64,000 bases of DNA from Marivita hallyeonensis (GTDB lineage Bacteria > Pseudomonadota > Alphaproteobacteria > Rhodobacterales > Rhodobacteraceae), in contig NZ_FQXC01000001.1 in NCBI RefSeq assembly GCF_900129875.1, positions 868,001 to 932,000 on the forward strand, given 5' to 3'. This document shows positions 3,196-21,669 of the stretch, in pieces (the stretch's first letter is position 1; every line of letters begins with the position of its first letter). The notes under the pieces are model-generated. The model did not search any database. It had not been told where the DNA came from and saw only the letters and a list, made by a program, of their open reading frames with translations. The position numbers were made by a program, and so were the translations under genes.

Positions 3196-4056
3196 TCAGG
3201 GCGCGTCCGATGCGTCGAACGGGTCGCGCTGGTGCTCGGTGCGGTAGCGCCTTGGCGTGGTTTGGTAGGCGCGTTCGAACAGACGGTAGAAATAGCTGGT
3301 GTTCTGAAATCCGCAGGTGGCGGCAATGGCCTCGATGGAACTGTCCTCGGTGCGCAAAAGCTGGGCTGCATGGTCGATGCGGATTCGGTTGATGTAGTCG
3401 GTGGGTGTCACCCCCAGCACGTCTTTGCAGGTACGGCAGACATGTTCGTGACTGCGCCCCGCCGCGGCGATGAACCCGGCCGCGCCGTCGCGGAAGACCT
3501 CGGGATGTTGCGCGGCATTGCAGGCTGCCGAAAACCAGCGCGGCGCGGTGCGCACCGCACGGGTTTCGGGCACGGCAACGCGGTTTGTCAGGGTGAGCAG
3601 GAACTCCTCGATCCTGGCAAGACTGCGGTCTGCGGTCTGCAATTGGCTCGCGACATTGAGGGCGCGCTTAAAGCGGGTGGGGCCGAGCGTGTGCAATTCC
3701 GGGATGTCGGATTTTGACGCGAAGAATCGGCCGGCGAGCGTATCGCTATAGCGCTTGATCAGGTGATCGGCGCTTTCGGTGCGGAACATGATGTTGATGA
3801 TCTCGCACCCCTGCAGGCGGTCAGCGCGGAAGGCGTGCGTGTCGGCGGGGCGCATGAAGACAAGCTGGCCCGGCTCTAGCATTTGCGTCACACCGTTGAT
3901 CCAGTGCGCGGTGCGGCCGTCGACGATCAGGAAGACCTCGTAGAAATCATGGTCATGCGCCTTTTGCGGAAAGCGCCGGGCGAGGTTCTTGCGCGCGTAG
4001 TGAAACGCCTCGCTGGCCGCGATGTAGCTGTCGAGGTGGAAGGTTTCGGACTGCAT
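3196..4056 (-). CDS. AraC-family transcriptional regulator with cupin sensor domain
   Basis: About 286 residues. The N-terminal half is a cupin-like sensor (HDHDFYEVFLIVDGR, then LEPGQLVFMRPADTHAF), and residues about 185-275 form the double helix-turn-helix, with the signature GFQNTSYFYRLFERAYQTTPRRYR near the end. It is divergent from the PhyH/ABC/mannosidase operon and separated from it by about 140 bases holding two direct repeats, so it probably controls that operon and perhaps itself. An in-frame ATG at 4125 would add 23 residues but would place coding sequence over those AT-rich repeats; the start at 4056 is therefore preferred. The ligand is unknown; a mannoside or derived sugar is an inference from the neighbours. 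Confidence 0.85.
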   Translation of the reverse strand: MQSETFHLDSYIAASEAFHYARKNLARRFPQKAHDHDFYEVFLIVDGRTAHWINGVTQMLEPGQLVFMRPADTHAFRADRLQGCEIINIMFRTESADHLIKRYSDTLAGRFFASKSDIPELHTLGPTRFKRALNVASQLQTADRSLARIEEFLLTLTNRVAVPETRAVRTAPRWFSAACNAAQHPEVFRDGAAGFIAAAGRSHEHVCRTCKDVLGVTPTDYINRIRIDHAAQLLRTEDSSIEAIAATCGFQNTSYFYRLFERAYQTTPRRYRTEHQRDPFDASDAP

Positions 4057-4106
4057 CGCGCGGGGCTTGGCCAATTCTCGCAAAGGATTGCGGCGCAGCT
4101 GAGCGC

Positions 4107-4136
4107 AAATATCAAAATTGTACAAGAAAATATCAA
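4107..4136. promoter_or_regulatory. Paired direct repeats AAATATCAA, 21 bp apart: candidate AraC operator
   Basis: AAATATCAA occurs at 4107-4115 and again at 4128-4136, exactly 21 bp start to start (two helical turns on one DNA face). This is the arrangement used by AraC-family proteins, and the site lies between the araC-type gene and the divergent operon in a locally AT-rich stretch. Binding is inferred, not shown. Confidence 0.55.
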
Positions 4137-4197
4137 TGCCAAGCGCTGCATACGCGTGCAGCGGCGCCTAGCGTTTGAAACAGGGAGGACGACCATC

Positions 4198-5022
4198 ATG
4201 CTTGATTCGGATGTGGACCTGCGGTTCCAGCCGGTCGACACCGCGCAGCCCAAACGGCTGAGCGCAGAGCAGATCGCGCAGTATAATGCGCTGGGGTTCG
4301 TGCAACCCTTTGACGCGTTTTCCGAAACCGAGATGGTCGACATTCGATCCTATATCGACGGGTTGATGGCCGATATGGGGCCGGACGGCGCGTACGGGAT
4401 CAACTGCTATCAGGCCCGGCTGTCGGGATTATACGACATCGCCACCGATGCGCGCATTCTGGACCATGTCGAAGATCTGGTCGGGCCGAACATCCTGTGC
4501 TGGGCATCGGCCATCCTGTCGAAAGCGCCGCATGATCCGAAAGCTGTGCCCTGGCATCAGGATGCCGGGTTCTGGTCGCTGTCGCCGGCGCGCACGGTGA
4601 CGGTGTGGCTGGCGATTGACGATGCCGATGGGGCCAATTCTGCGATGCGGTTCATTCCCGGGACGCATGACAAGGGTGCGCTGGCAATGCAGGCAACGGG
4701 GGACGGAAACGTCTTTCACAAGGAAACTGCCAGAGCCGAGGAGATGGGAGAGCCGTTCACCAACGTCCTGAAAGCCGGGCAGTTTTCGATGCATGCGGAC
4801 ATGCTGGTGCACGGGTCGTTGCCGAATAGAAGCGATCGCCGCAGATGTGGCCTGACCCTGCGCTACTGCCCGCCAGAGGTCGAGATCACCGATCCGGTCT
4901 GGGCCCGCGGCGTCGAAGCGATCCTGTGCCGGGGATCTGCGGGCGCGTGGACGACGCATCCGCGACCCGACAATGACGACATCACCAAGACCCGCAGCCC
5001 GCATGTGGTGGGGAACAACTGA
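4198..5022 (+). CDS. Phytanoyl-CoA dioxygenase (PhyH) family protein
   Basis: 274 residues, a Fe(II)/2-oxoglutarate-dependent oxygenase of the PhyH family. The iron triad is visible as H120-x-D122 in WHQDAGFW and the distal H205 in LVHGSLPNRSDRRR, with an arginine shortly after for 2-oxoglutarate. The fold block DGANSAMRFIPGTH is also typical. The ATG at 4198 is preceded by AGGGAGGA. It is the first gene of the operon controlled by the AraC-type protein and overlaps the next gene (TGATG). The substrate is unknown; members hydroxylate many small molecules. Confidence 0.88.
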   Translation: MLDSDVDLRFQPVDTAQPKRLSAEQIAQYNALGFVQPFDAFSETEMVDIRSYIDGLMADMGPDGAYGINCYQARLSGLYDIATDARILDHVEDLVGPNILCWASAILSKAPHDPKAVPWHQDAGFWSLSPARTVTVWLAIDDADGANSAMRFIPGTHDKGALAMQATGDGNVFHKETARAEEMGEPFTNVLKAGQFSMHADMLVHGSLPNRSDRRRCGLTLRYCPPEVEITDPVWARGVEAILCRGSAGAWTTHPRPDNDDITKTRSPHVVGNN

Positions 5023-5702
5023 TGCGGATCACGTGGTACGGGCACGCGGCGTTTGGTCTGGATCCGGAAAGCGGGCCTCGCATCATCACTGATCCCTACA
5101 CTCCCGAAGGTGTCGGTTATGCGCCGATCACCGATCCGGCGGATATGGTGATCATCTCATCTGACGACGACTCGGCACATTGCCGGGCAGACCTGATTTC
5201 GGGCAATCCTACGGTTGTGAATGCGCTCACGGTGGCCCAGAGTGGCGGGTCGCAGACAGCGCATGGTGTCGAGATCACCGCTATCGAGGCGGCGGAATGG
5301 GATCACCATCCGGAACACGAAGTGCCGGGTCAGAACGGGATGTACCGGTTCACGCTCGACGGCATCAAATTTGCGCATATGGGGGATGTGGGTAACCCAT
5401 TGACCGAGGCGCAGCAGGCCTTCTTCGAAGACGTGGATGTGCTGTTCGCGCTGGCGGGCGGGTATCTGACAATCGAACTGCCTGATCTCATGGAGATGGT
5501 CCATCGCGTGAAGCCTAAGCTGGTGATCCCGATGCATTTCCGGACACTGACCTACCGACCCCGCAATACGATGTGGATCGAGAGTTTCCTGAGCCATTTC
5601 AAAGACGAAGACATCGATTTTTCATTTGGTCCCACTGCGGAGATCACACAAGATACCCTTCCCGGGCGCACCCGCGTTCTGGTGATGGATTACGTCCGGT
5701 AG
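5022..5702 (+). CDS. UlaG-like metallo-beta-lactamase-fold protein with degenerate metal motif
   Basis: 226 residues, MBL fold of the UlaG-like group (MRITWYGHAAF at the start, HMGDVG at 119-124, VIPMHFRT at 169-175). The first metal motif, normally HxHxDH, reads SSDDDSAH at 46-53, so the paired histidines are absent while H53, H119, D122 and H172 remain. Metal content and activity are therefore uncertain. It starts inside the stop codon of the PhyH gene, indicating translational coupling. UlaG is an ascorbate-6-phosphate lactonase; a hydrolase acting on an imported sugar derivative is one possible role here, but this is inference. Confidence 0.8.
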   Translation: MRITWYGHAAFGLDPESGPRIITDPYTPEGVGYAPITDPADMVIISSDDDSAHCRADLISGNPTVVNALTVAQSGGSQTAHGVEITAIEAAEWDHHPEHEVPGQNGMYRFTLDGIKFAHMGDVGNPLTEAQQAFFEDVDVLFALAGGYLTIELPDLMEMVHRVKPKLVIPMHFRTLTYRPRNTMWIESFLSHFKDEDIDFSFGPTAEITQDTLPGRTRVLVMDYVR

Positions 5703-5768
5703 CGGGCGAGCCAGCGGCGTCTGACCGCGTCATTACGGGGCAACGACCCCACAACACGGAGGAAGATC

Positions 5769-7505
5769 ATGAGAACACCCATTTTGCGCGCTGCCGCGTC
5801 GGTTATCGCCTTTGCCGCCGCCAGTGGCATGGCCTTGGCGCAGGACGTGGCGCGCGAGGACACGGTCATTTTTGACCTCGACCGCACCATTCAAGACCCT
5901 GAGAATTTCAACTGGTTCACCGACAATTCCGGCGTGAAGCGCATCTCTGGCGCGCACCAGACCATGTGGGAGCCGCTCTTTATCCTGAACTACGGCACGG
6001 GTGAGCTTGAGCCTTGGCTCGCGACCGGCGCCGAAAGCAACGATGAGTTCACCGAATGGACACTCACGCTGCGCGAGGGTGTGACCTGGTCGGATGGCGA
6101 GGCATTCAATGCCGATGACGTGGTTTACACGGTAGGCGTTGCGCTTGAAAATGACGAGCTTTCGGCACGCGAAGCGGCGGCGTTGCGCGGGCAGGTGGCC
6201 AGCGTGGAGAAGGTGGACGATCTGACGGTCCGGTTCACCCTGAACGCACCCAACCCCCGCTTCGTCGTCGAGAATTTCGGTGTACGGATTGCCAACAGCT
6301 TCCTCATCATGCCGGAACATGTCTGGGCGGGCGAAGACCCGGCGACGTTTACCTTCTTCCCACCGATTGGTACGGGGCCCTACGAATACAGTTCGGGCGC
6401 GACGAACCGGATGATCTGGGACAAGCGCGACAGCTGGTGGGGGGCCGACACCGGCTTCATGGACATGCCGGAGCCCGCTCGGGTGATCTTCCTGGAATCC
6501 GGAGGTGAGGAAAGCCGGGCGCAGCTCATGGTGTCGAACCAGCTCGATGCGGCGCAGAACGTGACCATCGGCACGTTTGAGGCCATTCAAGCGCAAAACC
6601 CGAATGTGATCGCGTGGTACGACGATTATCCGTTTGCGGCGGCTGATCCCTGCGCGCGCCAGTTGGAGATCAACACAACTATCGCACCTTGGGACAACGC
6701 GAACATGCGCAAGGCCGTGGCCCACATCATCGACCGGTCGCAGATCGTGAACATCGCGTATGAAGGCACAACCGAGGCCAGCCAGACGATGTTTGCGCAG
6801 TATGGCTCGATGGATCCGTTCATCAACGCAGTGGTGGATGCAGGCTATGGCCTGCCTGCTCGTTCAGATGTCGAGGCCGGGCAGGCGCTTATCGAGGCCG
6901 AAGGCTGGACGCGGGATGGGGATTATTACACCAAGGATGGTGAGACCCTGTCGGTAAACATCCATGTCAACTCGGCGTCGACAGAATACACGCGCACCAT
7001 CGATGTCATCGTAGAGCAGCTTCAGCGTGCCGGGATCGACGCCCGCGCGGTGCCGGTGGAGAACGGTGTGTTCTGGGGCGAGGTGCTGCCTTTTGGCGCC
7101 TACGAGATGTCCTATAGCTGGCTGAGCTGTGGATCGGTGAACGAGCCCTGGGCTTCGATGGGCCGTTACACGGTGAAGGATGTGGTGCCGGTCGGCGAAC
7201 GCAGCCCGGGCTTCAACAACACCGCGCGCTGGGACGGCGCAGCGGCAGAGGCGTACTCCGCCATCGTGGACGAGATCTCGGGCCGCGCGCTTGGCGATGA
7301 GGCGGTACCGGGTCTGGTGGCAGAGGCGTACCAGCACCTTGATGCCGAGATGCCCTTCATCCCTCTGGTGCAGGCGGCCAAGCTCTTGCCGATGAACACG
7401 ACATACTGGACCGGTTGGCCAACGGCGGACAACTACTACAACTCACCGTTCTTCTGGTGGGGGCACACGCATCAGATCATTCACAACCTTGAAAAGGCTC
7501 AGTGA
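5769..7505 (+). CDS. ABC transporter substrate-binding protein, family 5 (DppA/OppA type)
   Basis: 578 residues with a signal peptide (cleavage near GMALA|QD). Family 5 features are visible: an N-terminal MWEPLFILNYGTGELEPWLA region, TLREGVTWSDGEAFNADDVVYT, and VRFTLNAPNPRFV. These periplasmic proteins capture peptides, oligosaccharides, nickel or opines for ABC import. The ATG at 5769 follows GGAGGA. It is followed by a strong hairpin and then the permease genes. The alpha-mannosidase at the operon end makes an oligosaccharide or glycoconjugate a reasonable guess, over peptides. Confidence 0.9.
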   Translation: MRTPILRAAASVIAFAAASGMALAQDVAREDTVIFDLDRTIQDPENFNWFTDNSGVKRISGAHQTMWEPLFILNYGTGELEPWLATGAESNDEFTEWTLTLREGVTWSDGEAFNADDVVYTVGVALENDELSAREAAALRGQVASVEKVDDLTVRFTLNAPNPRFVVENFGVRIANSFLIMPEHVWAGEDPATFTFFPPIGTGPYEYSSGATNRMIWDKRDSWWGADTGFMDMPEPARVIFLESGGEESRAQLMVSNQLDAAQNVTIGTFEAIQAQNPNVIAWYDDYPFAAADPCARQLEINTTIAPWDNANMRKAVAHIIDRSQIVNIAYEGTTEASQTMFAQYGSMDPFINAVVDAGYGLPARSDVEAGQALIEAEGWTRDGDYYTKDGETLSVNIHVNSASTEYTRTIDVIVEQLQRAGIDARAVPVENGVFWGEVLPFGAYEMSYSWLSCGSVNEPWASMGRYTVKDVVPVGERSPGFNNTARWDGAAAEAYSAIVDEISGRALGDEAVPGLVAEAYQHLDAEMPFIPLVQAAKLLPMNTTYWTGWPTADNYYNSPFFWWGHTHQIIHNLEKAQ

Positions 7506-7547
7506 ATTCGGTGATCGCTGCGCGCATGCGTGCGCAGGTTAATACGT

Positions 7548-7576
7548 GTCGGACGCGCGGGTGTCGTGCGTCCGAC
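7548..7576 (+). promoter_or_regulatory. Intercistronic hairpin after the substrate-binding protein gene
   Basis: GTCGGACGC (7548-7556) and GCGTCCGAC (7568-7576) form a perfect 9-bp stem with an 11-base loop, between the binding-protein gene and the first permease gene. No T-run follows. Such hairpins commonly protect the upstream transcript end, so that binding protein is made in excess over permease. Confidence 0.6.
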
Positions 7577-7599
7577 CTATACGCCCGGAGGTCTTGCCC

Positions 7600-8610
7600 A
7601 TGGGACGCATCCCTCGCGACTATCTGATCAATCGCGTCGTCACGTTGGTTCTGACGATCCTGATCGCCGCAACGATCATCTGGATCATCCCGCGCCTGTC
7701 GCCAATCGATCCGGCCGAGATCGCGCTGGGCCGGATGGCCGCCGGTGCTGGGGCCGTTGCCAATTCCGAGGAAATCCTCGCGCAGCTTCGAACGCAGATG
7801 GGCATCGATCAGCCTTTGATCGTGCAGTACGTCAAGTACCTGGCTGGAGCTCTGGTCTTTGATTTCGGTCTTTCGACGGCGGCGTTCCCAACGCCCGTTT
7901 CCACGCTGATCCTGAATGCCTTGCCCTGGACACTTGGCCTGATGATCCTGTCTTTGATCATCACGTTTTTCATCGGCAATCTGCTGGGCGCGCTGATGGT
8001 GTGGGAACGATCCCCGAAACTGGTGAAGGTCGCCATTCCCGCAGCAATGGTGTTCACCTCGATTCCGCCGATCCTGTCGGGGCTGTTGCTGATGTGGATC
8101 TTCGCGGCCAAGCTTCAGTGGTTTCCGCTGACCGGGGCCTATTCGATCTTTGTGGAGCCGGGGTGGAACTGGGCGTTCATCCAATCGGTGATCCACCATG
8201 GGTTTCTACCCGCGCTGTCCATCGTCATCGTGACTTTCGGCTTCTGGGCGCTGGGCATGCGTGGGCTGATGATCACGGTGCAGGGCGAGGATTACGTGAA
8301 ACTGGCCGAGGCCAAGGGGCTGCGCCCGCGCTACATCCTATACCGCTACATGATCCGTAACGCGATCCTGCCGCAGATCACGGCGTTTGCATTGAAAGTC
8401 GGATTGCTGATCGCGGGGCAGGTGCTGGTGGAACGCATCTTTGCCTATAACGGGATGGGTAAGCTGCTTTACGACGCGATCCTCAACCAGGATTTCCCGG
8501 TCATTCAGGGCGTCAGCTACGTGATCATTCTGATGACCGCGCTGAGCGTGTTCCTTGTGGATCTGCTCTACCCGTTCATCGACCCCCGCATCCGGCACGA
8601 GGCGCATTGA
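7600..8610 (+). CDS. ABC transporter permease (DppB/OppB type)
   Basis: 336 residues with about six membrane segments. It carries the family pattern: an N-terminal segment (VVTLVLTILIAATIIWIIPRL), the periplasmic loop with QLRTQMGIDQPLIVQYVKYL, and the EAA loop EDYVKLAEAKGLRPRYILYRYMIRNAILP that contacts the ATPase. The in-frame GTG at 7546 lies at the start of the intercistronic hairpin; the ATG at 7600 is preferred. It pairs with the next permease, one base downstream. Confidence 0.88.
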   Translation: MGRIPRDYLINRVVTLVLTILIAATIIWIIPRLSPIDPAEIALGRMAAGAGAVANSEEILAQLRTQMGIDQPLIVQYVKYLAGALVFDFGLSTAAFPTPVSTLILNALPWTLGLMILSLIITFFIGNLLGALMVWERSPKLVKVAIPAAMVFTSIPPILSGLLLMWIFAAKLQWFPLTGAYSIFVEPGWNWAFIQSVIHHGFLPALSIVIVTFGFWALGMRGLMITVQGEDYVKLAEAKGLRPRYILYRYMIRNAILPQITAFALKVGLLIAGQVLVERIFAYNGMGKLLYDAILNQDFPVIQGVSYVIILMTALSVFLVDLLYPFIDPRIRHEAH

Positions 8611-8611
8611 G

Positions 8612-9544
8612 ATGACCAGTCAAGACCATGTGCCGATGACCCGCGCCGAAAAGCGGCAGGCGAAGCGGATCAGACGGTTCGACAATCCGTGGATGAATCC
8701 GAAGCTTCTTTGGGGCGTCGGACTGCTTTTGGGAATCATCGCGCTGGGCCTGATCGGGCGGGTTCTGTGGGATCCGGAGCTGGTCTTCACCGGCTCGGCA
8801 CCGCTGAAACTGCCACCCGTTGGCTTTGAGAACCTGCGACGGCAGGAGGGGATATGGGACTATCCGCTCGGCACCGACGGAGGAGGGCGCGACTTGCTGG
8901 CGCTCATCATCATCGGCGCACCGAATACGCTTTTCGTTGGGTTGCTGGCCTCGCTGATCGGGATGTCGATCGGGATCTTCCTGGGGTTCTCGGCGGGGTT
9001 CCTCGGTGGACGGACGGACGATACGATCCGGGTGCTGGCGGATGTCATGATCACGATCCCACCGCTTCTGATACTCGTGGTGTTCCAGTCTGCCTTCGGG
9101 GACGTGACCCTGACCATGATGGCGCTCTTGATCGCCGGGTTTGTCTGGCAGTCGCCGACGCGGCTCATCCGTGCGCAGGTTCTGTCGATGAAGCAGTCCG
9201 GCTATGTGCAGATGGCGCAGCTCTCGGGGGCTTCGACCGGCCACATCATGTTCCGCGAGATGCTGCCGAACCTCGTGCCGTATCTTTTCGGGTCGTTCAT
9301 CGCGTCGGTGACGACCTCCATCGTCACTGCAGTTGGATTGGAGGTTCTGGGCCTTGGTCCGCAGCGTATTCCGACGTTGGGACGCACGATTTACGAAGCG
9401 ATCAACGCGGGCGCGCTGATCCAGAACTTGTGGTGGTGGTGGGGAATCCCGACGCTGTTGCTGGCGGTGATGTTCATCGGATTGCTCTTGATTAACCTTG
9501 GTTTGGACGAGGTTTCCAATCCGCGGCTGAGGAAGTTGTCATGA
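8612..9544 (+). CDS. ABC transporter permease (DppC/OppC type)
   Basis: 310 residues, second permease of the importer. After a charged N-terminus (KRQAKRIRRFDNPWMNPKLLWG) come five to six membrane segments and the coupling loop QMAQLSGASTGHIMFREMLPN. The DYPLGTDGGGRDLLALII stretch is the usual DppC mark (GTDxxGRD). It starts one base after the stop of the first permease, so coupling is very likely. Confidence 0.88.
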   Translation: MTSQDHVPMTRAEKRQAKRIRRFDNPWMNPKLLWGVGLLLGIIALGLIGRVLWDPELVFTGSAPLKLPPVGFENLRRQEGIWDYPLGTDGGGRDLLALIIIGAPNTLFVGLLASLIGMSIGIFLGFSAGFLGGRTDDTIRVLADVMITIPPLLILVVFQSAFGDVTLTMMALLIAGFVWQSPTRLIRAQVLSMKQSGYVQMAQLSGASTGHIMFREMLPNLVPYLFGSFIASVTTSIVTAVGLEVLGLGPQRIPTLGRTIYEAINAGALIQNLWWWWGIPTLLLAVMFIGLLLINLGLDEVSNPRLRKLS

Positions 9545-9611
9545 CTTGCGCGTTGCACCCGGTGGTCCGCAGAGCTGGGATGCGCCTTCGCGACAGGACT
9601 GGAGGTCGGAC

Positions 9612-11342
9612 ATGACGGACAAACCCGTTCTCACGCTCAGGGACCTGTCGATCGAATTCCCGACGCCGAAAGGTCTCGTGAAGGCCGTCAAACATCTGGA
9701 TCTGACCATCCAGAAAGGTCGCCGCGTCGGGTTCATCGGGGAAAGCGGGTCCGGCAAAACCACCACGGCGCTAGCAATCATGCAGATGCTGGCGGAGCCG
9801 GGTCGCGTGTCCTCCGGAACGATTGATCTGGCGGGGATCGACGTGCTGGCACTGTCGGAAGAGGAGATGCGTCAGACCCGGCTTAGCCGCATCGCCTACA
9901 TCCCGCAGGGTGCGATGAACTCGCTCAACCCGGTGATGCGGATCGAACCACAGTTGTGGGATGGCATCATTGCCCATGAGGGTCATGTCGTAGAGGCTGA
10001 ATTGAAGCGCCGGTCCGACGAGGCACTGGCCTCGGTTGGCTTGCCGCACCACACGGCGCAGCTGTATCCGCACGAACTGTCCGGAGGCATGAAGCAGCGT
10101 GTCTGCATCGCGATGGGGATCATTCTGAACCCGGACCTGATCATCGCCGACGAACCGACCAGCGCGCTCGACGTGGTCACTCAGCGGCAGGTGATGCAGA
10201 CCCTCAAGGATATTCAGGCGAAGATCGGATCGGGTTTGATCCTGATCGGTCACGACATGGGGCTGATGGCGCAATCGGTCGATGAGCTTGCCGTGCTCAA
10301 GGACGGGGAACTGGTCGAACACGGCACGGTTCAGCAAATCCTCGAAGCTCCGGAACATCCCTACACACAGGACCTCATTTCGTCGGTTCCTCTGGTTGGT
10401 GGAGAGAGTTTCCTCAACCCCGAACGCCAGGCAGACGCCCCGAAACGTGACAGCACCGAGCCGCTCTTGCGCTTCGACACCGTGCGCAAGGACTACGGCG
10501 ATGTGACAGCGTTGCATCCGCTGTCCTTCACCCTACAGGGCGACACGCCGCAGATCATCTCCATCGTCGGGCAATCGGGGTCAGGCAAATCGACGATGGG
10601 GTCGATCATGCTGGGCTTCAACGAGCCCTCACAAGGGAAAGTCCTTTACGAAGGGCAGGACGTCTACAACATGTCGGCGGCCCAAAGCCTTGCATTCCGC
10701 AAGAATGTGCAGGCGGTGTTTCAGGACCCCTATGCCTGCTTCAACCCGTTCTACCGGGTCAATCATGCGCTGAAATTTCCTTTCAAGCGGTTCGGCCTCG
10801 CAAAGTCCGAAGCGCATACACAGCAAGCCATGGAAGAGGCCTGTGCCGCTGTGGGTCTTGATCCCGATCTGGTGCTGTCCCGCTACCCGCACCAGCTGTC
10901 GGGTGGGCAGCGGCAACGTCTGATCGTGGCGCGGGCCTTGATGTTGTCGCCCAAGCTGCTGATCGCGGATGAGCCTGTGTCGATGGTGGACGCCAGTCTG
11001 CGCGCGTCGATCCTGTCGAACATCTACGATCTGAAGGACAAGTACGGGATCTCGATCCTCTACATCACCCACGATCTGGCAACGGCGTATCACGTGAGCG
11101 ATTTCGTCATGGTCCTTTACAAGGGCCACGTGGTCGAAGCAGGACCGCCGAAAGAGGTCATCGGTGATCCGCAGCACCCCTATACACAGCTTTTGATCGA
11201 CTCCATCCCGTGGCCGGATTTGCACCGGTCCTGGGGCCATACCGGGGGCGAATGGGACCCGGAGGCGAAGGAGGCCGCTGCACGTCGCGCCGACATGGTG
11301 TTTCGCGGTGCGGTCCCGGGGTTCGATCTGGTCGCCGGGTGA
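9612..11342 (+). CDS. Fused double-ATPase ABC subunit (DppD-DppF type)
   Basis: 576 residues holding two complete nucleotide-binding domains in one chain. Domain 1 has GESGSGKTT, LSGGMKQRV and LIIADEPTSALD; domain 2 has GQSGSGKSTMG, LSGGQRQRL and LLIADEPVSMVD. Both H-loops are present (LIGHDMG, YITHDLA), so both sites look competent. This fusion replaces the separate DppD and DppF of enteric systems. The ATG at 9612 is preceded by ACTGGAGGTCGGAC. Its stop overlaps the GTG start of the alpha-mannosidase gene. Confidence 0.9.
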   Translation: MTDKPVLTLRDLSIEFPTPKGLVKAVKHLDLTIQKGRRVGFIGESGSGKTTTALAIMQMLAEPGRVSSGTIDLAGIDVLALSEEEMRQTRLSRIAYIPQGAMNSLNPVMRIEPQLWDGIIAHEGHVVEAELKRRSDEALASVGLPHHTAQLYPHELSGGMKQRVCIAMGIILNPDLIIADEPTSALDVVTQRQVMQTLKDIQAKIGSGLILIGHDMGLMAQSVDELAVLKDGELVEHGTVQQILEAPEHPYTQDLISSVPLVGGESFLNPERQADAPKRDSTEPLLRFDTVRKDYGDVTALHPLSFTLQGDTPQIISIVGQSGSGKSTMGSIMLGFNEPSQGKVLYEGQDVYNMSAAQSLAFRKNVQAVFQDPYACFNPFYRVNHALKFPFKRFGLAKSEAHTQQAMEEACAAVGLDPDLVLSRYPHQLSGGQRQRLIVARALMLSPKLLIADEPVSMVDASLRASILSNIYDLKDKYGISILYITHDLATAYHVSDFVMVLYKGHVVEAGPPKEVIGDPQHPYTQLLIDSIPWPDLHRSWGHTGGEWDPEAKEAAARRADMVFRGAVPGFDLVAG

Positions 11343-14300
11343 CGCCTTTGATTGCGACCCACCATCAATGGCGGCTGACCAAGGATAAAATCGGCGCGCG
11401 GCTCAAACTGATTGAACCGATGGTCCATCGGCGCAAGCTGCCTTTGCCGCCGTTTCAGGTTGTCCCATTGCCCGGCCCACGCGTCGATGCGCTCCGCGTG
11501 CATGATCCAGACGGCGCGTACGAGGTTCCGCATGACAGCTATTGGGGCCATGCGGATATGAACTTTGTCATGCACAGCCACTTCACCGTGCCGGCGGATT
11601 GGGATGCCTCCCAGATCGCGTTGCACCTTCCTTTGGGTGTGCTGGGCGACATCTTTAATCACCCGGAATCTCTTGTGCACATCGACCACGCGCCGATTGC
11701 GTCGGCCGACCGGTACCACCACACCATTCCGCTGTACCCCAAGGTCGCGGACGGCAAAGAACACCTGATCTCGTTGCATGGCTGGACCGGTCTTGCGGGT
11801 TGGCCGCCCGATCCGGATGCCAAAGCCAAGCTTTACATGGGCCGGCCCGCCTTGGTGGAGCGCTGTCCGCACACGGTGGCATTTCTGCGACTGGCGCGGG
11901 CAGCGTTCGACACGCTGGGTCATCTGGGCCTGCACACCGCCGAGGCGCCGGGTCTTCTCGACGCGCTCGATACGGCGTTTCAGGCTTTGGATACGCGCGA
12001 TCCGATGGGAGAGGCCTTCTACGCCTCGATGCCGGAAGCCTTACGCCTTTTGCGCGAAGGGATCGAGGATGCGGGCGCGCCTATGGATGTCACTCTGCAC
12101 GGCATCGGTCATGCGCATATGGATATCGCGTATCTTTGGACGGTCGATCAAATCCGCCTGAAGAACGCGCGGACCTACTCCAACGTGCTGCGCCTGATGG
12201 ACCGGGATCCGGAATTCCTGTTCAGCCATTCGCAGCCTGCGCTGTATGAGATGACGGCGCGTGACTACCCCGCTCTATTCGAGCGGATCAAGACGCGGGT
12301 TGCCGAGGGTCGCTGGGAAGTGATGGGCGGGATGTGGGTGGAGCCGGACCTCAACATCTCAGGCGGCGAAGCGCTGGTACGCCAGTTGCAGTTGGGCCGC
12401 ACCTACTTTCAGAAGACCTTCGGCGATGTTGAAACGCCGGTGCTCTGGCTGCCGGATACGTTCGGGTTTCCCGGACAAATCCCCCAATTGATGCGGCAGG
12501 CGGGACTGGACTGGTTTGTCACCAACAAGCTGAACTGGAACCAGATCAATCGCGTTCCCTGGTCGAGCCATGTCTGGGAAGGGATCGACGGAAGCCGGGT
12601 CATGGCGCACATCCTGACCACCCCGCGCGAAGTGCAATACCTGCCGTTCCCGACCAACTACAAAAGCGATCTGAGCGCTGCCGAGGTGATGGGTACTGTC
12701 ACCCACGCAACTGGCGATCACCGCGATGACCTGCCGATCTGTTACGGTTACGGCGATGGCGGCGGCGGGCCGACGGAGGACCTGCTGGCGAAAGCACACG
12801 CCTATGCCGCCATGCCGGGAATGCCGCGCTTGAAGATGAGCACCGTTCGCGCGTCGATGGAGGCGATAGCAGCCAAGAAGGACAATCTCCCTGTCTGGAC
12901 AGGTGAGCATTACATGGAAGGCCACCGCGGCGTCTTTACCTCTCAGGCCTGGATCAAGCGAGCCAACCGCAAGGCCGAGGCTGCCTTGCACGAGGCCGAA
13001 GCTTTGGCGGTGATGGCTGGAACAGCCCCGAATCTGACCCATGCCTGGAAACTGCTCTGTCTCAACCAATTCCATGACATCGTCACCGGCACCTCGATCG
13101 GCGCGGTGTACGAGGACTCCAAACGGGATTTCCACGCCATTTTCAGCGCCGCAGAAGACGCGGCACAGGTGGCGGCCAAAGCTTTGTCCGGGCCGGAACC
13201 CGTTGTCCTGAACACCAGCCCCACCACCGGTTTACGGGTCGTGGAAAGCGATGACGTGTCCGACGCACCCGGGCAGGTGACGGAAACGGGCATGCTGCAC
13301 TGGATGCCGGACTTGCCTGCCTATTCCGCGACGCCGCTGTCTGCCGCGACACTGCCCGACCACCCAGCCCGCGCGCATCAACGCGATGGGTATGTCGTGC
13401 TGGAGAACGAGGCCCTTCGGCTCGAAATCCTGCCCAACGGGCAGATCGCCAGCATCATCGATCGCGCCACAGGACGCGAGGTGCTCGCGCAGGGCAAGCT
13501 CGGCAATCAGCTTCAGGTGTTCGAGGATCGTCCCATCTGCTGGGACGCCTGGGATATCGATCCGCATATCGAGGACCGGCAGGATCTGATCGACAGCTCA
13601 ACCGAAATCGACATTGTCGAACCGGGTCCGATCCGCGTGGCCGTGCGCGTGACGCACCGCTGGCGCCAGAGCACGGTGAGCCAGACCATCCGCCTCACAG
13701 CCGGGTCGCGGCGGATCGACTTTGACACGGTGGCGGACTGGCACGAAACACACACATTGCTGAAAGCGGCTTTCCCTGTTGCGATTGCCGCGCCGAAAGC
13801 GCTGTTCGATATCCAGTGGGGCGTAATCGAACGCGCGACCTCGCGCGACACGGCCTTCGATGCGGCTCGCTTCGAGGTGCCAGCCCAGAAATGGGCCCAG
13901 GTGAGCGATGGTTCACGCGCGGTGGCCCTGCTGAATGACTGCAAATACGGCTACGACATCCACCGCAACATGGTCCGGCTGACGCTCATCAAATGCGCGA
14001 CTTCGCCGGATCCCAAGGCGGATCAGGGCGAACACCGCTTCACATACGCCCTGCTGCCGTATGACGCTCATGCACGATCTGTTCTTGATCACGCAGCCTA
14101 TGATTTGAATCTGCCACTGCGTGTCACGCAGCCACGCAGAGAGGCTGACTTGCCGGAAACAACGCCCTTTGTCGCCTGCGTGACGGCGGGTGTGATCATC
14201 GAGACCCTCGTGCCTCTGGAGGATAGAACCGGATACGACATTCGGCTGTTCGAGGCGCGCGGGGCCAGCCAGTCGGCGCGGCTGGAGTTCGCCCATGCAC

Positions 14301-14425
14301 CTGCTGCGATCGGGGCCACGGACCTTTTGGGTCGACCCGCGAATAAGCCCATTGCTCAGGACGGCAATTCAGTGGTCTTCGACGTGGCACCCTTCGAAAT
14401 CGTGACCTTACGCGTGCGCACGTAA
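11339..14425 (+). CDS. Glycoside hydrolase family 38 alpha-mannosidase
   Basis: 1028 residues, full length for GH38. The zinc and active-site block GIGHAHMDIAYLW (H258, H260, D262) and the nucleophile aspartate in LPDTFGFPGQIPQ (D373) are present, followed by the central three-helix region (RANRKAEAALHEAEAL) and the large beta C-terminal domain. No signal peptide is visible, so it should act in the cytoplasm on imported alpha-mannosides. Translation most likely starts at the GTG at 11339, inside the stop of the ATPase gene; a start at 11210 would run far into that gene. It is the last gene of the operon. Confidence 0.9.
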   Translation: MTPLIATHHQWRLTKDKIGARLKLIEPMVHRRKLPLPPFQVVPLPGPRVDALRVHDPDGAYEVPHDSYWGHADMNFVMHSHFTVPADWDASQIALHLPLGVLGDIFNHPESLVHIDHAPIASADRYHHTIPLYPKVADGKEHLISLHGWTGLAGWPPDPDAKAKLYMGRPALVERCPHTVAFLRLARAAFDTLGHLGLHTAEAPGLLDALDTAFQALDTRDPMGEAFYASMPEALRLLREGIEDAGAPMDVTLHGIGHAHMDIAYLWTVDQIRLKNARTYSNVLRLMDRDPEFLFSHSQPALYEMTARDYPALFERIKTRVAEGRWEVMGGMWVEPDLNISGGEALVRQLQLGRTYFQKTFGDVETPVLWLPDTFGFPGQIPQLMRQAGLDWFVTNKLNWNQINRVPWSSHVWEGIDGSRVMAHILTTPREVQYLPFPTNYKSDLSAAEVMGTVTHATGDHRDDLPICYGYGDGGGGPTEDLLAKAHAYAAMPGMPRLKMSTVRASMEAIAAKKDNLPVWTGEHYMEGHRGVFTSQAWIKRANRKAEAALHEAEALAVMAGTAPNLTHAWKLLCLNQFHDIVTGTSIGAVYEDSKRDFHAIFSAAEDAAQVAAKALSGPEPVVLNTSPTTGLRVVESDDVSDAPGQVTETGMLHWMPDLPAYSATPLSAATLPDHPARAHQRDGYVVLENEALRLEILPNGQIASIIDRATGREVLAQGKLGNQLQVFEDRPICWDAWDIDPHIEDRQDLIDSSTEIDIVEPGPIRVAVRVTHRWRQSTVSQTIRLTAGSRRIDFDTVADWHETHTLLKAAFPVAIAAPKALFDIQWGVIERATSRDTAFDAARFEVPAQKWAQVSDGSRAVALLNDCKYGYDIHRNMVRLTLIKCATSPDPKADQGEHRFTYALLPYDAHARSVLDHAAYDLNLPLRVTQPRREADLPETTPFVACVTAGVIIETLVPLEDRTGYDIRLFEARGASQSARLEFAHAPAAIGATDLLGRPANKPIAQDGNSVVFDVAPFEIVTLRVRT

Positions 14426-16732: not shown

Positions 16733-18460
16733 TTACTGCTGCCAGCTCTGGATCAGTTCGTCATAGGAGACGGTGATCGGCTGTTCGTCCTCGTTCTCGA
16801 GTTTCGGGAACGGAGCACCCGGCTGCGCAAACCAGTATTCTGCGTCGCGCTCTTCGTTCATGACCGGACCGATGTCGCCCTGAACGCCCGCGCGCTCAAG
16901 CCGTTCGAGCACCGCTTCCTGCGCTTCACAGAGGGCATCAAGCGCTTCCTGAGCGGTCTTCTGACCGGACATCGCATCACCGATGTTCTGCCACCAGAGC
17001 TGCGCCAGACGCGGGTAGTCCGGGACATTGGTGCCTGTCGGCGACCAGGCCACACGGGCTGGCGAGCGGTAGAATTCGATCAGACCACCCAGGCGCGGCG
17101 CGCGTTCGGTGAAGTGATCGGAGTTGATGGTGGACTCGCGGATGAAGGTCAGGCCGACGTCCGACTTCTTCAGATCGACGGTCTTCGACGTGACGAACTG
17201 CGCGTAAAGCCATGCGGCTTTGGCACGATCCTCGGGTGTCGACTGCATCAGTGTCCACGAACCTGCGTCCTGGTAGCCGACCTTCTGGCCTTCTTTCCAG
17301 TACGACCCGTGCGGAGACGGCGCCATACGCCACTTCGGCGTGCCGTCTTCATTCAGAACGGCGGCGGCACCGTCACCGACCATGTCGGCGGTAAAGGCGG
17401 TGTACCAGAACATCTGTTGCGCGATCTGACCTTGCGCCGGGACCGGACCGGCCTCGGAGAAGGTCATGCCTGCAGCTGTCGGCGGCGAGTACTTCTGCAG
17501 CCACTCGATCGCCTTGTTCACCGCGTAAACGGCGGCTGGTGAGTTGGTCGCGCCACCGCGTGCCACACAGGAGCCAACCGGCTGCGAGTTTTCATTGACG
17601 CGGATGCCCCATTCATCGACCGGCAGGCCGTTCGGTTCACCCACGTCTCCCATACCAGCCATCGACATCCATGCGTCGGTGTAGCGCCAGCCAAGTGACG
17701 GGTCTTTCTTGCCGTAGTCCATGTTGCCGTAGATATCGCCTTCGATCCCCATATGGCTCAGGTCGCGGCCCGTGAAGAACTCGGCAATATCTTCATACGC
17801 CGACCAGTTCACCGGAACGCCAAGCTCGTAGCCAAACTCTGCCTGGAAATCCTGCATGTTCTTTTCATCGGTGAACATGTCGTAGCGGAACCAGTAAAGG
17901 TTCGCGAATTGCTGGTCGGGCAGCTGGTAGAGTTTGCCATCCGGACCAGTGGTGAACTGAAGACCGATGAAGTCATCGAGATCCAGCGTCGGAAGGGTCA
18001 CGTCCGCGCCTTCGCCTGCCATCCAGTCGGTCAGGTTGCGTACCTGCTGATACCGCCAATGTGTGCCGATCAGGTCGGAGTCGTTGACATAGGCGTCATA
18101 GATGTTCTCACCCGTTTGCATCTGGGTCTGCAAACGTTCGACCACGTCGCCTTCGCCGATCAGGTCGTGCGTGACCTGGATACCGGTGATCGCGCTGAAG
18201 GCCGGGGCAAGAACCTGGCTTTCGTATTCATGCGTGGTGATCGTTTCCGACACGACCGAGATTTCCATGCCCTGGAACGGTGCAGCGGCGTCGACGAACC
18301 ACTGCATCTCGGCTTCCTGTTCCTCGCGCGTGAGCGTCGACAGGCCCGCGATTTCGTTGTCGAGGAATTCCATCGCGGCATCCATGTCCGCGAAGGCGGG
18401 CGAGGTCAGCAGCCCCGCCACCACGGCCAGCGCCGAGGTTGATTTGAGTGATAAGTGCAT
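16733..18460 (-). CDS. glpV: ABC transporter substrate-binding protein, GlpV type
   Basis: 575 residues with a signal peptide (cleavage near SPAFA|DM). Unusually long for a family-1 sugar-binding protein; its length and place in the set of six genes match GlpV, the periplasmic glycerol-binding component of the GlpSTPQUV importer known from Rhizobium. Recognisable stretches are LAPAFSAITGIQVTHDLIGEGDVVERL and DGKLYQLPDQQFANLYWFRYDMFTDE. It is the last transporter gene of a leftward operon. Glycerol as substrate is inferred from homology; another polyol is possible because no glpK or glpD is seen here. Confidence 0.82.
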   Translation of the reverse strand: MHLSLKSTSALAVVAGLLTSPAFADMDAAMEFLDNEIAGLSTLTREEQEAEMQWFVDAAAPFQGMEISVVSETITTHEYESQVLAPAFSAITGIQVTHDLIGEGDVVERLQTQMQTGENIYDAYVNDSDLIGTHWRYQQVRNLTDWMAGEGADVTLPTLDLDDFIGLQFTTGPDGKLYQLPDQQFANLYWFRYDMFTDEKNMQDFQAEFGYELGVPVNWSAYEDIAEFFTGRDLSHMGIEGDIYGNMDYGKKDPSLGWRYTDAWMSMAGMGDVGEPNGLPVDEWGIRVNENSQPVGSCVARGGATNSPAAVYAVNKAIEWLQKYSPPTAAGMTFSEAGPVPAQGQIAQQMFWYTAFTADMVGDGAAAVLNEDGTPKWRMAPSPHGSYWKEGQKVGYQDAGSWTLMQSTPEDRAKAAWLYAQFVTSKTVDLKKSDVGLTFIRESTINSDHFTERAPRLGGLIEFYRSPARVAWSPTGTNVPDYPRLAQLWWQNIGDAMSGQKTAQEALDALCEAQEAVLERLERAGVQGDIGPVMNEERDAEYWFAQPGAPFPKLENEDEQPITVSYDELIQSWQQ

Positions 18461-18533
18461 AAAGTCCTCCCGTTTTAGACTTCTGTTATGGGCCTTGGCC
18501 TTTGATGACCTCTTGCCCCGAGTTGCCTGGCCC

Positions 18534-18806
18534 TCAGACGTATCTGAAGACCAAAACAGCGTAGACGGCGCAGACCGCCAGCGCCCACCACTGGGCGAGG
18601 TCGGTCAGGCCGAGCCATGCGATATTGATGAAGGCTGATCCCAACAGCGTGATGAACAGCCGATCCCCCCGCGTCGTCTCGATCCGCAACACACCGACGC
18701 GCGGCGTCTCGGGATACTTGATCGCAAGGATCGTGAAGGTGATGAGCAGCGACGCGATCACGAGAAAAAAGATCGCCGTCGGCCATGTCCATGCCATCCA
18801 GTCCAT
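18534..18806 (-). CDS. glpU: DUF2160 small membrane protein (GlpU type)
   Basis: 90 residues with two membrane segments (about 10-30 and 50-72) and a short basic loop between (KYPETPRVGVLRIETTRGDR). This is the DUF2160 protein encoded in GlpSTPQUV loci; its exact role in transport is not established. It starts at the stop of the preceding permease gene and is followed after about 70 bases by glpV, as in the Rhizobium order S-T-P-Q-U-V. Confidence 0.82.
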   Translation of the reverse strand: MDWMAWTWPTAIFFLVIASLLITFTILAIKYPETPRVGVLRIETTRGDRLFITLLGSAFINIAWLGLTDLAQWWALAVCAVYAVLVFRYV

Positions 18807-19699
18807 TACACCCTCCCGAGGGCAAAGCCCTTCGCGATGTAGTTGCGCACGAAGTAGATCACCAAGGCGCCCGGAATGATTGTCAGCACGCCCGCCGCCG
18901 CCAGCACGCCCCAGTCGATGCCCGATGCGCCTTGGGTCCGGCTCATCGTGGCGGCGATGGGTTTTGCATCATCGGCCGTCAAGGTGCGGGACAGGAGAAG
19001 CTCCACCCACGAAAACATGAAGCAGAAGAACGCAGCAACGCCGATGCCCGACGCGATGAGCGGCATGAAGATCTTCACGAAGAACCGCCCGAAGGAATAG
19101 CCGTCGATATAGGCGGTCTCGTCGATCTCTTTCGGTACGCCGCGCATGAAGCCTTCGAGGATCCACACGGCCAGCGGCACGTTGAACAGGCAGTGCGCCA
19201 GAGCGACCGCAATGTGCGTGTCGAAGAGACCAACCGACGAATAAAGCTGGAAGAAAGGCAAGGCGAAGACCGCGGGTGGCGCCATCCGGTTGGTCAGCAG
19301 CCAGAAGAACAAGTGCTTGTCGCCCATGAAATGATAGCGCGAAAACGCGTAGGCCGCCGGCAGCGCCACTGCAAGAGAGATCACCGTGTTGATCATCACG
19401 TAGATGAGCGAGTTGATGTAGCCCATGTACCACGCCGGATCGGTGAAGATCGTGACGTAATTCTGGATCGTCGGATCGGCCGGGATCAACGTGAAGGACG
19501 ACACGATCTCGGCATTCGTCTTGAAGCTCATGTTGATGAGCCAATAGATCGGCAGAAACAGGAACAGCAGGTAGAGCACCATCACCACGGTCGACCCGCT
19601 CGGCCGGAACCGTTTGCCGGTGGTTGCCCGTGCCTGTGTTGCTGTCACTTTTCCAGGGATCGAGGCCGCTCCGGGCGCGGCTGGGCTGGCATCCGACAT
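18806..19699 (-). CDS. glpQ: ABC transporter permease (GlpQ type)
   Basis: 297 residues, MalG-like permease with about six membrane segments. The EAA coupling loop is EGFMRGVPKEIDETAYIDGYSFGRFFVKIFMPLIASG. A proline/alanine-rich cytoplasmic N-terminus of about 35 residues precedes the first segment. The gene shares one base with the stop of the upstream permease gene. Confidence 0.85.
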   Translation of the reverse strand: MSDASPAAPGAASIPGKVTATQARATTGKRFRPSGSTVVMVLYLLFLFLPIYWLINMSFKTNAEIVSSFTLIPADPTIQNYVTIFTDPAWYMGYINSLIYVMINTVISLAVALPAAYAFSRYHFMGDKHLFFWLLTNRMAPPAVFALPFFQLYSSVGLFDTHIAVALAHCLFNVPLAVWILEGFMRGVPKEIDETAYIDGYSFGRFFVKIFMPLIASGIGVAAFFCFMFSWVELLLSRTLTADDAKPIAATMSRTQGASGIDWGVLAAAGVLTIIPGALVIYFVRNYIAKGFALGRV

Positions 19700-20574
19700 C
19701 AGCGGCCCTCCCGTTTGTCTAGGTTCGTCATGACAGTGTAGAACACCCAGCTGATGAGCAGGATCACAAGGAAATACATGATCGAGAACGCCGCAGCCGG
19801 ACCAAGGTCGAACTGACCCAAGGCCATCTTCACAAGGTCAATGGACAGGAACGTGGTCGAACTGCCGGGGCCACCGCCGGTCACGACGAAGGGCTCGGTG
19901 TAGATCATGAAGCTATCCATGAAACGCAGCAGCACGGCGATCAGCAACACGCCTGCCATCTTTGGGAGTTCGATGTATCGGAACACCGCCCAACGGCTGG
20001 CCTGATCGATCTTGGCTGCCTGATAATAGGCCTGCGGAATGGATTGAAGTCCGGCATACGCCAGTAGCGCCACGAGCGATGTCCAGTGCCACACGTCCAT
20101 GACGATCACAGTGATCCACGCGTCAAACGGGTCTTGAGTGTAGTTGTAGTCAATCCCCAACGCCGCCAGCGTCCCGCCCAACAGGCCGATATCGACGCGC
20201 CCGAAGACCTGCCAAATGGTGCCGACCACGTTCCACGGGATCAGCAACGGCAGGGCCATGAGCACGAGGCAAACCGACACCCAGACGCCCTTTTTGGGCA
20301 TCGACAGGGCCACCAGAATGCCCAGCGGGATTTCGATAGCCAGGATGATGCCCGAGAAGATCAGCTGCCGCTGAAGAGCGCCCCACATCCGGTCATCTTC
20401 GAGAAGCTCCTCGAACCAGGTGAGGCCCGCCCAAAAGAACTGGTTGTTGCCGAAGCTGTCCTGCACCGAATAGTTGACGACGGTCATCAGCGGGATCACC
20501 GCCGAAAACGCCACCAGCACGAGAACCGGCAAGACAAGAAACCAGGCTTTCTGATTGACGGTCTTTTCCATCAC
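19699..20574 (-). CDS. glpP: ABC transporter permease (GlpP type)
   Basis: 291 residues, MalF-like permease with about six membrane segments. The coupling loop reads LQSIPQAYYQAAKIDQASRWAVFRYIELPKM. It overlaps the upstream ATPase gene by four bases (ATGA), so the two are translationally coupled. Confidence 0.85.
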   Translation of the reverse strand: MMEKTVNQKAWFLVLPVLVLVAFSAVIPLMTVVNYSVQDSFGNNQFFWAGLTWFEELLEDDRMWGALQRQLIFSGIILAIEIPLGILVALSMPKKGVWVSVCLVLMALPLLIPWNVVGTIWQVFGRVDIGLLGGTLAALGIDYNYTQDPFDAWITVIVMDVWHWTSLVALLAYAGLQSIPQAYYQAAKIDQASRWAVFRYIELPKMAGVLLIAVLLRFMDSFMIYTEPFVVTGGGPGSSTTFLSIDLVKMALGQFDLGPAAAFSIMYFLVILLISWVFYTVMTNLDKREGR

Positions 20575-21659: not shown

Positions 21660-21669
21660 GGTCTACTCC

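What the first reader, a model, noticed from the sequence alone, without database searches (positions are those of the whole stretch)
3196..14425. AraC-controlled operon joining a PhyH dioxygenase, MBL protein, family-5 ABC importer and cytoplasmic GH38 alpha-mannosidase
Genes overlap or are tightly spaced through about 10 kb, so they act together. A family-5 importer suggests a large substrate, GH38 without a signal peptide suggests intracellular cleavage of alpha-mannosides, and the dioxygenase implies oxidation of the aglycone or sugar. I know no described pathway with this set.
Basis: partly seen in the sequence, partly recalled or inferred. Interest (0 to 1): 0.55.

Follow-up and report, generated by a model that had tools for sequence, protein, structure and literature searches.

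The report
Conserved operon for methylated algal mannose-sugars
A marine bacterium carries a conserved gene set that appears to take up chains of the sugar mannose and break them inside the cell, and its iron-dependent oxygenase may strip off methyl groups that would otherwise block digestion of algal sugars.

Summary
The operon is real, and relatives keep it as a unit: AraC | PhyH–MBL–SBP–permB–permC–ATPase–GH38 (28 distinct loci). Of 295 family genomes, 20 hold the binding-protein orthologue; all 20 also hold the PhyH orthologue (1 of the other 275 does). A direct-repeat AraC site, TCAA-N17-TCAA, precedes the first gene in 28 of 29 distinct loci. The binding protein resembles chitin-oligosaccharide and mannoside binders, the GH38 resembles Ams1. 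Uptake and intracellular cleavage of alpha-manno-oligosaccharides is therefore likely. I propose oxidative O-demethylation of methylated mannose. In a Jannaschia copy a P450 sits inside the operon; its nearest solved structure by far is 6g5o/6g5q (recalled: Zobellia 6-O-methyl-galactose demethylase). Nine of 28 copies carry a second PhyH. Two copies have a sulfatase gene inside or beside them, and a PhyH-free sibling operon has an acetyl esterase, as if decoration-removing enzymes were swapped in. Microalgal N-glycans carry O-methyl-mannose. There is no biochemistry, and the P450 is in only one copy, so the demethylase step is inferred. I read it as a new variant of methyl-sugar utilisation, a 2-oxoglutarate dioxygenase replacing the P450.

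The parts
3196..4056 (-). AraC-family regulator (cupin sensor + HTH_18)
   Evidence: Pfam (run on 3196-4053; the ATG is at 4056 in the frame); AraC homologue next to the operon in 28 of 28 distinct loci
4107..4136 (.). Probable AraC operator: AAATATCAA direct repeat, start-to-start spacing 21 bp
   Evidence: TCAA-N17-TCAA in 30 of 31 loci, 28 of 29 distinct, against 0-2 of 31 at any other spacing from 8 to 30; only perfect copy of the pattern in the genome
4198..5022 (+). PhyH Fe(II)/2-oxoglutarate dioxygenase; H120-x-D122, H205 and R216 invariant; proposed sugar O-demethylase
5022..5702 (+). Metallo-beta-lactamase-fold protein, TM0207-like, canonical HxHxDH motif replaced (S-S-D-D-D-S-A-H-C)
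5769..7505 (+). Family-5 solute-binding protein, resembling oligosaccharide binders
7600..8610 (+). Permease B (OppB/DppB type)
   Evidence: run from 7597; ATG at 7600
8612..9544 (+). Permease C (OppC/DppC type)
9612..11342 (+). Fused two-domain ABC ATPase
11339..14425 (+). GH38 alpha-mannosidase, Ams1-like, no evident signal peptide; H260, D262, D373, H579 invariant

Best explanation
A catabolic operon for O-methylated alpha-manno-oligosaccharides released from algal glycans. An AraC regulator acts at a 21-bp-spaced direct repeat and turns on one operon. The binding protein and family-5 importer bring manno-oligosaccharides into the cytoplasm. The PhyH enzyme (in some relatives with a second PhyH, in one with a P450) hydroxylates the O-methyl group of mannose, giving an unstable hemiacetal that releases formaldehyde and a free mannose hydroxyl. 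The cytoplasmic GH38 then trims the unblocked alpha-mannosides. Shown by sequence: the gene set, its conservation, the conserved operator-like repeat, the intact catalytic residues, the family placements. Inferred: the mannoside substrate (likely), the O-methyl substrate and demethylation chemistry (moderate), the MBL protein's role (open; perhaps a lactone or ester hydrolase).
For: Binding protein: the 12 best matches (107 bits or more) include 1zty, named chitin-oligosaccharide binding protein (132.6 bits), and 4pfu/5hm4, named mannoside ABC sugar-binding protein (119 bits); the next match, NikA, has 71.7 bits. GH38 nearest to Ams1 (406 bits) and to 7ufr-7ufu 'alpha-mannosidase'. SBP orthologue in 20 of 295 genomes at 69% identity or more (next 35%). 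PhyH orthologue in 21 of 295 at 59% or more (next 40%), including all 20 SBP genomes (Fisher p 4e-30, which ignores relatedness). GH38 in 19 of those 20; in the twentieth (G142) the contig ends inside the ATPase gene. P450 inside the Jannaschia operon (L008:14111-15289) matches 6g5o/6g5q at E 7.5e-77, next 1e-33. PMC10033563 (abstract and passages): such P450s turn 6-O-methyl-galactose into galactose and formaldehyde. Five of 295 genomes hold relatives of that P450 (45-48% identity); in 5 of 5 it lies beside ABC importer genes of types often used for sugars, in 4 of 5 in an SDR-SDR-P450-GH31 unit. Second PhyH in 9 of 28 distinct loci. Natural substrates exist: 3-O-methyl and 3,6-di-O-methyl mannose at non-reducing ends of Chlorella N-glycans (PMC6344472, abstract); 6-O-methyl-mannose in Porphyridium N-glycans (PMC4135232, passages); review PMC12507850 (passages); mannose-rich coccolith polysaccharide analysed against methyl-mannose standards (PMC10290126, passages). 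One operon-bearing genome is Rhodophyticola porphyridii (L010).
Against: No biochemistry. The P450 is inside the operon in only 1 of 28 distinct loci, and the window's own genome has no relative of it at 1e-60. I saw no formaldehyde-handling gene constant in the operon. The top group of binding-protein matches also holds entries named oligopeptide or peptide transporter proteins. PhyH enzymes catalyse many hydroxylations; the nearest structures, ThoJ and SyrB2, are not known demethylases (recalled). Microalgal N-glycans also carry aminoethylphosphonate, another possible target. One PhyH orthologue (G059) sits beside a urate-oxidase-family gene and other ABC genes, its genome has no SBP or GH38 orthologue, and it lacks the AraC repeat. 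In G171 PhyH lies away from the operon, beside an AraC homologue and without the repeat. SBP and PhyH distance matrices correlate only weakly (r 0.21, 22 loci), so parts may have been exchanged.
Confidence: 0.5

Rival explanations
1. Alpha-manno-oligosaccharide operon in which PhyH hydroxylates something other than an O-methyl ether: a sugar carbon, a peptide or lipid aglycone, or an aminoethylphosphonate group on the glycan.
For: PhyH-fold neighbours include enzymes acting on amino acids, ectoine and natural products; weak match to the methylphosphonate hydroxylase model (30.6 bits); aminoethylphosphonate is reported on microalgal N-glycans (PMC12507850, passages).
Against: Methylphosphonate-hydroxylase and chlorinating-enzyme scores lie far under their cut-offs (30.6 against 500, 79.2 against 226.3 bits); the P450 in a sister operon is nearest to a sugar-demethylase structure (identity of 6g5o recalled).
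Confidence: 0.3
2. Mannosylglycerate (digeneaside) or another small mannosyl compatible solute is the substrate; PhyH oxidises the aglycone.
For: GH38 shares its catalytic part with the mannosylglycerate hydrolase model (78.7 bits).
Against: Score is far under the cut-off of 1138; GH38 is much nearer to Ams1 (406 bits); the binding protein resembles oligosaccharide binders.
Confidence: 0.08
3. A peptide or glycopeptide importer with a linked but functionally separate mannosidase and dioxygenase.
For: Family-5 importers include Opp and Dpp peptide systems; several of the best binding-protein matches carry peptide-transporter names.
Against: The specifically named best matches are sugar binders; the unit is conserved in 28 distinct loci and co-occurs tightly.
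Confidence: 0.07

Closest known systems
P450-dependent 6-O-methyl-D-galactose utilisation in porphyran-degrading Flavobacteriia (PMC10033563, abstract and passages seen; Reisky 2018 and Robb 2018 known only through its citations, Robb 2018 not held)
   Same: Marine, methylated algal sugar, oxidative removal of an O-methyl block next to glycoside hydrolase genes; a relative of that kind of P450 sits inside one copy of the present operon.
   Different: Here a 2-oxoglutarate dioxygenase of the PhyH family takes the slot, the sugar is probably mannose, and uptake is by a family-5 ABC importer.
Thermotoga mannoside family-5 ABC importer (4pfu/5hm4; organism recalled)
   Same: Family-5 binding protein for mannosides, sequence match at 2.1e-33.
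   Different: No PhyH in that system (recalled); the linkage of the mannose may differ.
Ams1-type GH38, including 7ufr-7ufu (recalled: Bifidobacterium longum N-glycan mannosidases)
   Same: GH38 architecture and best sequence matches.
   Different: No dioxygenase is known to me in those loci (recalled).
GH38 plus family-5 importer plus acetyl xylan esterase gene block in genome G132 (L121)
   Same: Same importer type and a GH38 (38% identity) in one gene block.
   Different: An AXE1 esterase and an epimerase; no PhyH found in the 19.9 kb fetched.

Membership tests
Fe(II)/2-oxoglutarate PhyH dioxygenase | PhyH domain over cut-off | tested here: met
   PF05721 90.5 bits, cut-off 22
Fe(II)/2-oxoglutarate PhyH dioxygenase | HxD...H iron triad and 2OG-binding Arg 11 after the distal His | tested here: met
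   H120, D122, H205, R216 invariant in 20 sequences (that the Arg at +11 binds 2OG is recalled)
Fe(II)/2-oxoglutarate halogenase (SyrB2 type) | Asp of the triad replaced by Ala or Gly (recalled); model over cut-off | tested here: not met
   Asp present; TIGR01762 79.2 bits, cut-off 226.3
GH38 alpha-mannosidase | GH38 domains over cut-off and catalytic residues kept | tested here: met
   Four Pfam domains over cut-off; H260, D262, D373, H579 invariant in 10 sequences, one of them partial (roles recalled)
Mannosylglycerate hydrolase MngB | NCBIfam equivalog over cut-off | tested here: not met
   78.7 bits, cut-off 1138
Family-5 oligosaccharide importer | SBP_bac_5, two permeases, two ATPase domains | tested here: met
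Family-5 oligosaccharide importer | Binding of oligosaccharide, not peptide | not testable with these tools
   Sequence neighbours only
Sugar O-demethylation pathway | Formaldehyde-releasing demethylase acting on a methyl sugar | not testable with these tools
   Inferred from gene context
Sugar O-demethylation pathway | P450 of the 6g5o kind in the window's own genome | tested here: not met
   No match at 1e-60 in G000
Metallo-beta-lactamase hydrolase | HxHxDH metal motif (recalled) | tested here: not met
   Replaced in the 12 sequences aligned, although the predicted fold is nearest to TM0207

The most novel reading that the evidence does not exclude
PhyH-family 2-oxoglutarate dioxygenases are an undescribed class of sugar O-demethylases: roseobacters use them, in place of or alongside P450s, to unmask methylated mannose from algal N-glycans or coccolith polysaccharide before a GH38 can act, so that algal glycan methylation and bacterial demethylases form an interlocking defence and counter-measure.
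Probability: 0.4. Interest if true: 0.75.

Novelty: new variant of a known kind. Interest (0 to 1): 0.58.

Why it matters
O-methylation of mannose occurs in several microalgal glycans, and its significance is called unknown in a 2025 review (PMC12507850, passages); an earlier review postulates that it protects glycoproteins from deglycosylating enzymes (PMC4135232, passages). If this operon demethylates such glycans, it names a bacterial counter-enzyme, adds a P450-free route for methyl-sugar breakdown that needs no redox partner proteins, and gives a marker gene set for roseobacters feeding on algal glycoproteins. It would also give a tool enzyme for removing methyl caps from glycans.

Tried and rejected
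Mannosylglycerate as substrate: rejected on scores. Halogenase: the triad Asp is present. The P450 upstream of AraC in L036: set aside as unrelated, its best matches are vitamin-D- and biotin-type P450s and a ribosomal-protein gene is nearby. PanB-like protein as an ordinary ketopantoate enzyme: it aligns to the PDB PanB entries only over about residues 51-244, so its chemistry is left open. The MBL fold search gave TM0207 (function unknown) first and then distant MBLs. The pattern search for a wider regulon found one perfect and two 3-mismatch sites in the genome, against one for the reversed control, so no second convincing site. A search of 398 genomes drawn from the phylum (the draw includes the window's own family) found PhyH at 1e-50 in 5, all of the window's family; outside it I hold only Woeseiaceae L007 and Pontiella L011. 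Literature searches for the set or for O-methylmannose demethylation gave nothing direct; hits (except PMC12507850) and (12 of 17 listed) other than PMC10033563 were seen as listings only and not opened. One search found no paper naming 6g5q.
Full report
OBSERVATION. The genome has 4.19 Mb in 20 contigs; I place it in Rhodobacteraceae by its neighbours, the nearest named relative there being Marivita sp. S6314 (L006, PhyH 86% identical). Starts that I would use: AraC 4056, PhyH 4198, permB 7600, GH38 GTG 11339, overlapping the ATPase stop. YihY (14438) follows on the same strand; it is also there in L006 and I do not count it as part of the system.

CONSERVATION. A scan of genome contigs with PhyH gave 12 loci. 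A search of 295 genomes of the family with the binding protein gave 22 matches: 20 genomes (the window's included) at 69% identity or more and two at 35% and 33%. I fetched regions of the 19 others at 69% or more, not of the two weak ones. Two of the resulting 32 loci (window included) are duplicates: L052 = L003 and L041 = L005. Setting aside those two, L004 (AraC, PhyH and a short MBL, then its contig ends) and L011 (Pontiella, PhyH only), 28 distinct loci remain. AraC homologue 28 of 28; PhyH 27 of 28 (not in L043); MBL 26 of 28 (not in L003, nor in L007 and its upstream piece L140); GH38 27 of 28 (L053 is cut by its contig end); second PhyH 9 of 28. The SBP of Woeseiaceae L007 lies in L140, 61% identical. 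PhyH orthologues (59% or more) occur in 21 of 295 genomes: all 20 SBP genomes plus G059; in G171 the copy is away from the operon. Of the 24 genomes with a GH38 hit, 17 have full-length copies at 50% or more, all of them SBP genomes; G098 and G102 have contig-cut copies, and G142's contig ends before the gene. Five genomes have GH38 hits without an SBP orthologue: G132 and G077 (39%), and partial copies in G256, G180 and G001. G180 keeps an SBP fragment directly beside a GH38 fragment at its contig end (L123), as a deletion inside the operon would leave.

REGULATION. The AraC-PhyH gap holds AAATATCAA at 4107-4115 and 4128-4136, start to start 21 bp. TCAA-N17-TCAA is found in the 260 bases before the first gene in 30 of 31 loci (L011 left out; 28 of 29 without duplicates; missing in L039), while every other spacing from 8 to 30 is found in 0 to 2 of 31. 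It is also present in the gammaproteobacterial locus L007. The perfect pattern occurs once in the genome, so the regulator looks local. It is absent before the PhyH of L114 (G059) and L115 (G171). In L054 a second site lies about 95 bp before a PanB-like gene, which suggests that gene is in the same regulon.

COMPONENTS. Binding protein: the 12 best solved relatives include 1zty (chitin oligosaccharide) and 4pfu (mannoside), well ahead of NikA; others in that group are named only as ABC or peptide-transporter proteins. GH38: Ams1 (406 bits) and 7ufr-7ufu; likely Zn and nucleophile residues invariant in ten sequences, one of them partial (roles recalled). PhyH: model pLDDT 85.3, nearest folds ThoJ and SyrB2, iron triad and Arg invariant in 20 sequences; the second PhyH likewise in 7. 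MBL: nearest fold TM0207, with the HxHxDH motif replaced in the 12 sequences aligned.

WHY DEMETHYLATION. First, the Jannaschia operon L008 inserts, between the SBP and permB, a second PhyH and a P450 whose best PDB match is 6g5o/6g5q at E 7.5e-77, the next at 1e-33. The PDB copy names it only 'Cytochrome P450'; that it is the Zobellia 6-O-methyl-galactose demethylase is recalled (PMC10033563, passages, says that such a Zobellia structure was solved, without giving its code). I wrote the demethylase hypothesis into the notebook in the same batch as that search, before its result was seen. Second, relatives of that P450 occur in 5 of 295 genomes. In 5 of 5 they lie beside ABC importer genes of types often used for sugars. 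In 4 of 5 (L116, L117, L119, L120) they lie in an ABC-permease-SDR-SDR-P450-GH31 unit with a divergent GH13-LacI pair, with a PanB-like gene nearby in 3; in L118 they follow a CUT1-like importer, an AraC and a ferredoxin (Pfam was run on L118, L119 and L120 genes, L116 and L117 by homology to them). Third, PanB-like genes (hydroxymethyl-transferase family) also accompany the PhyH operon in L054 and L007, suggestive of one-carbon handling but unproven. Fourth, other decoration-removing enzymes appear: a sulfatase gene inside L053 and one after GH38 in L050, and an acetyl xylan esterase in the PhyH-free GH38 block L121. I ran Pfam only on selected neighbours, not on all. Fifth, methylated mannose is reported in several microalgal N-glycans (PMC6344472 abstract, PMC4135232 and PMC12507850 passages), and methyl-mannose standards were used for mannose-rich coccolith polysaccharide (PMC10290126 passages).

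AGAINST. One P450 in 28 loci is one event. The window genome has no such P450. G059's PhyH is in another setting and G171's lies outside the operon. SBP and PhyH distances correlate weakly (r 0.21), AraC and PhyH strongly (0.82), in the 22 of 32 loci compared. Aminoethylphosphonate or carbon hydroxylation remain possible for PhyH.

VERDICT. The importer plus mannosidase reading is likely (about 0.8). Demethylation by PhyH is the best single account of the dioxygenase (about 0.5). Literature searches showed me no description of the set; the library lacks most subscription papers, and most listed hits were not opened.

Noticed in passing
L054:2525-3319, L007:7335-8123, L117:10217-11778, L119:17685-18452, L120:1490-2263: PanB-like (ketopantoate hydroxymethyltransferase family) genes recur near both PhyH-GH38 and P450-GH31 sugar operons; the N-terminal part does not align with PDB PanB. 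Possible one-carbon acceptor after demethylation.
   Followed up: partly
L116, L117, L119, L120: A recurring sugar locus: ABC importer, two SDRs, a P450 related to 6g5o, GH31, with divergent GH13 and LacI; possibly for methylated glucosides.
   Followed up: partly
window 5022-5702 and orthologues: MBL-fold protein with its HxHxDH motif replaced by an S-S-x-D-D-x-A-H-C stretch in 12 of 12 sequences; metal site and function unknown.
   Followed up: partly
L122, L123, L125: Partial GH38 copies; in L123 an SBP fragment abuts a GH38 fragment, as if the operon were being lost by deletion.
   Followed up: partly
L011:9980-12304: Pontiella sulfatireligans has a 50% identical PhyH next to a 434-aa protein without Pfam match at 0.001; its genome holds 10 GH38 matches.
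   Followed up: partly
L054:3316-4191, L051:3337-4251, L007:8128-8985: A xylose-isomerase-like TIM-barrel protein (Pfam run on the L054 copy) joins the operon in three loci.
   Followed up: no
L008:5782-8976 (-): A 1064-aa protein with Fer2, 4Fe-4S and DmmA-like parts next to AraC in the P450-bearing operon; possible electron donor for the P450.
   Followed up: no
L040:1-2049 (-): A DAO/GCV_T (sarcosine- or dimethylglycine-dehydrogenase-like) gene lies just beyond AraC in one copy.
   Followed up: no
window 16733-22758 (-): A separate ABC importer operon (binding protein, two permeases, two ATPases) downstream; it looks like a glycerol-type importer by eye, no family search run.
   Followed up: no
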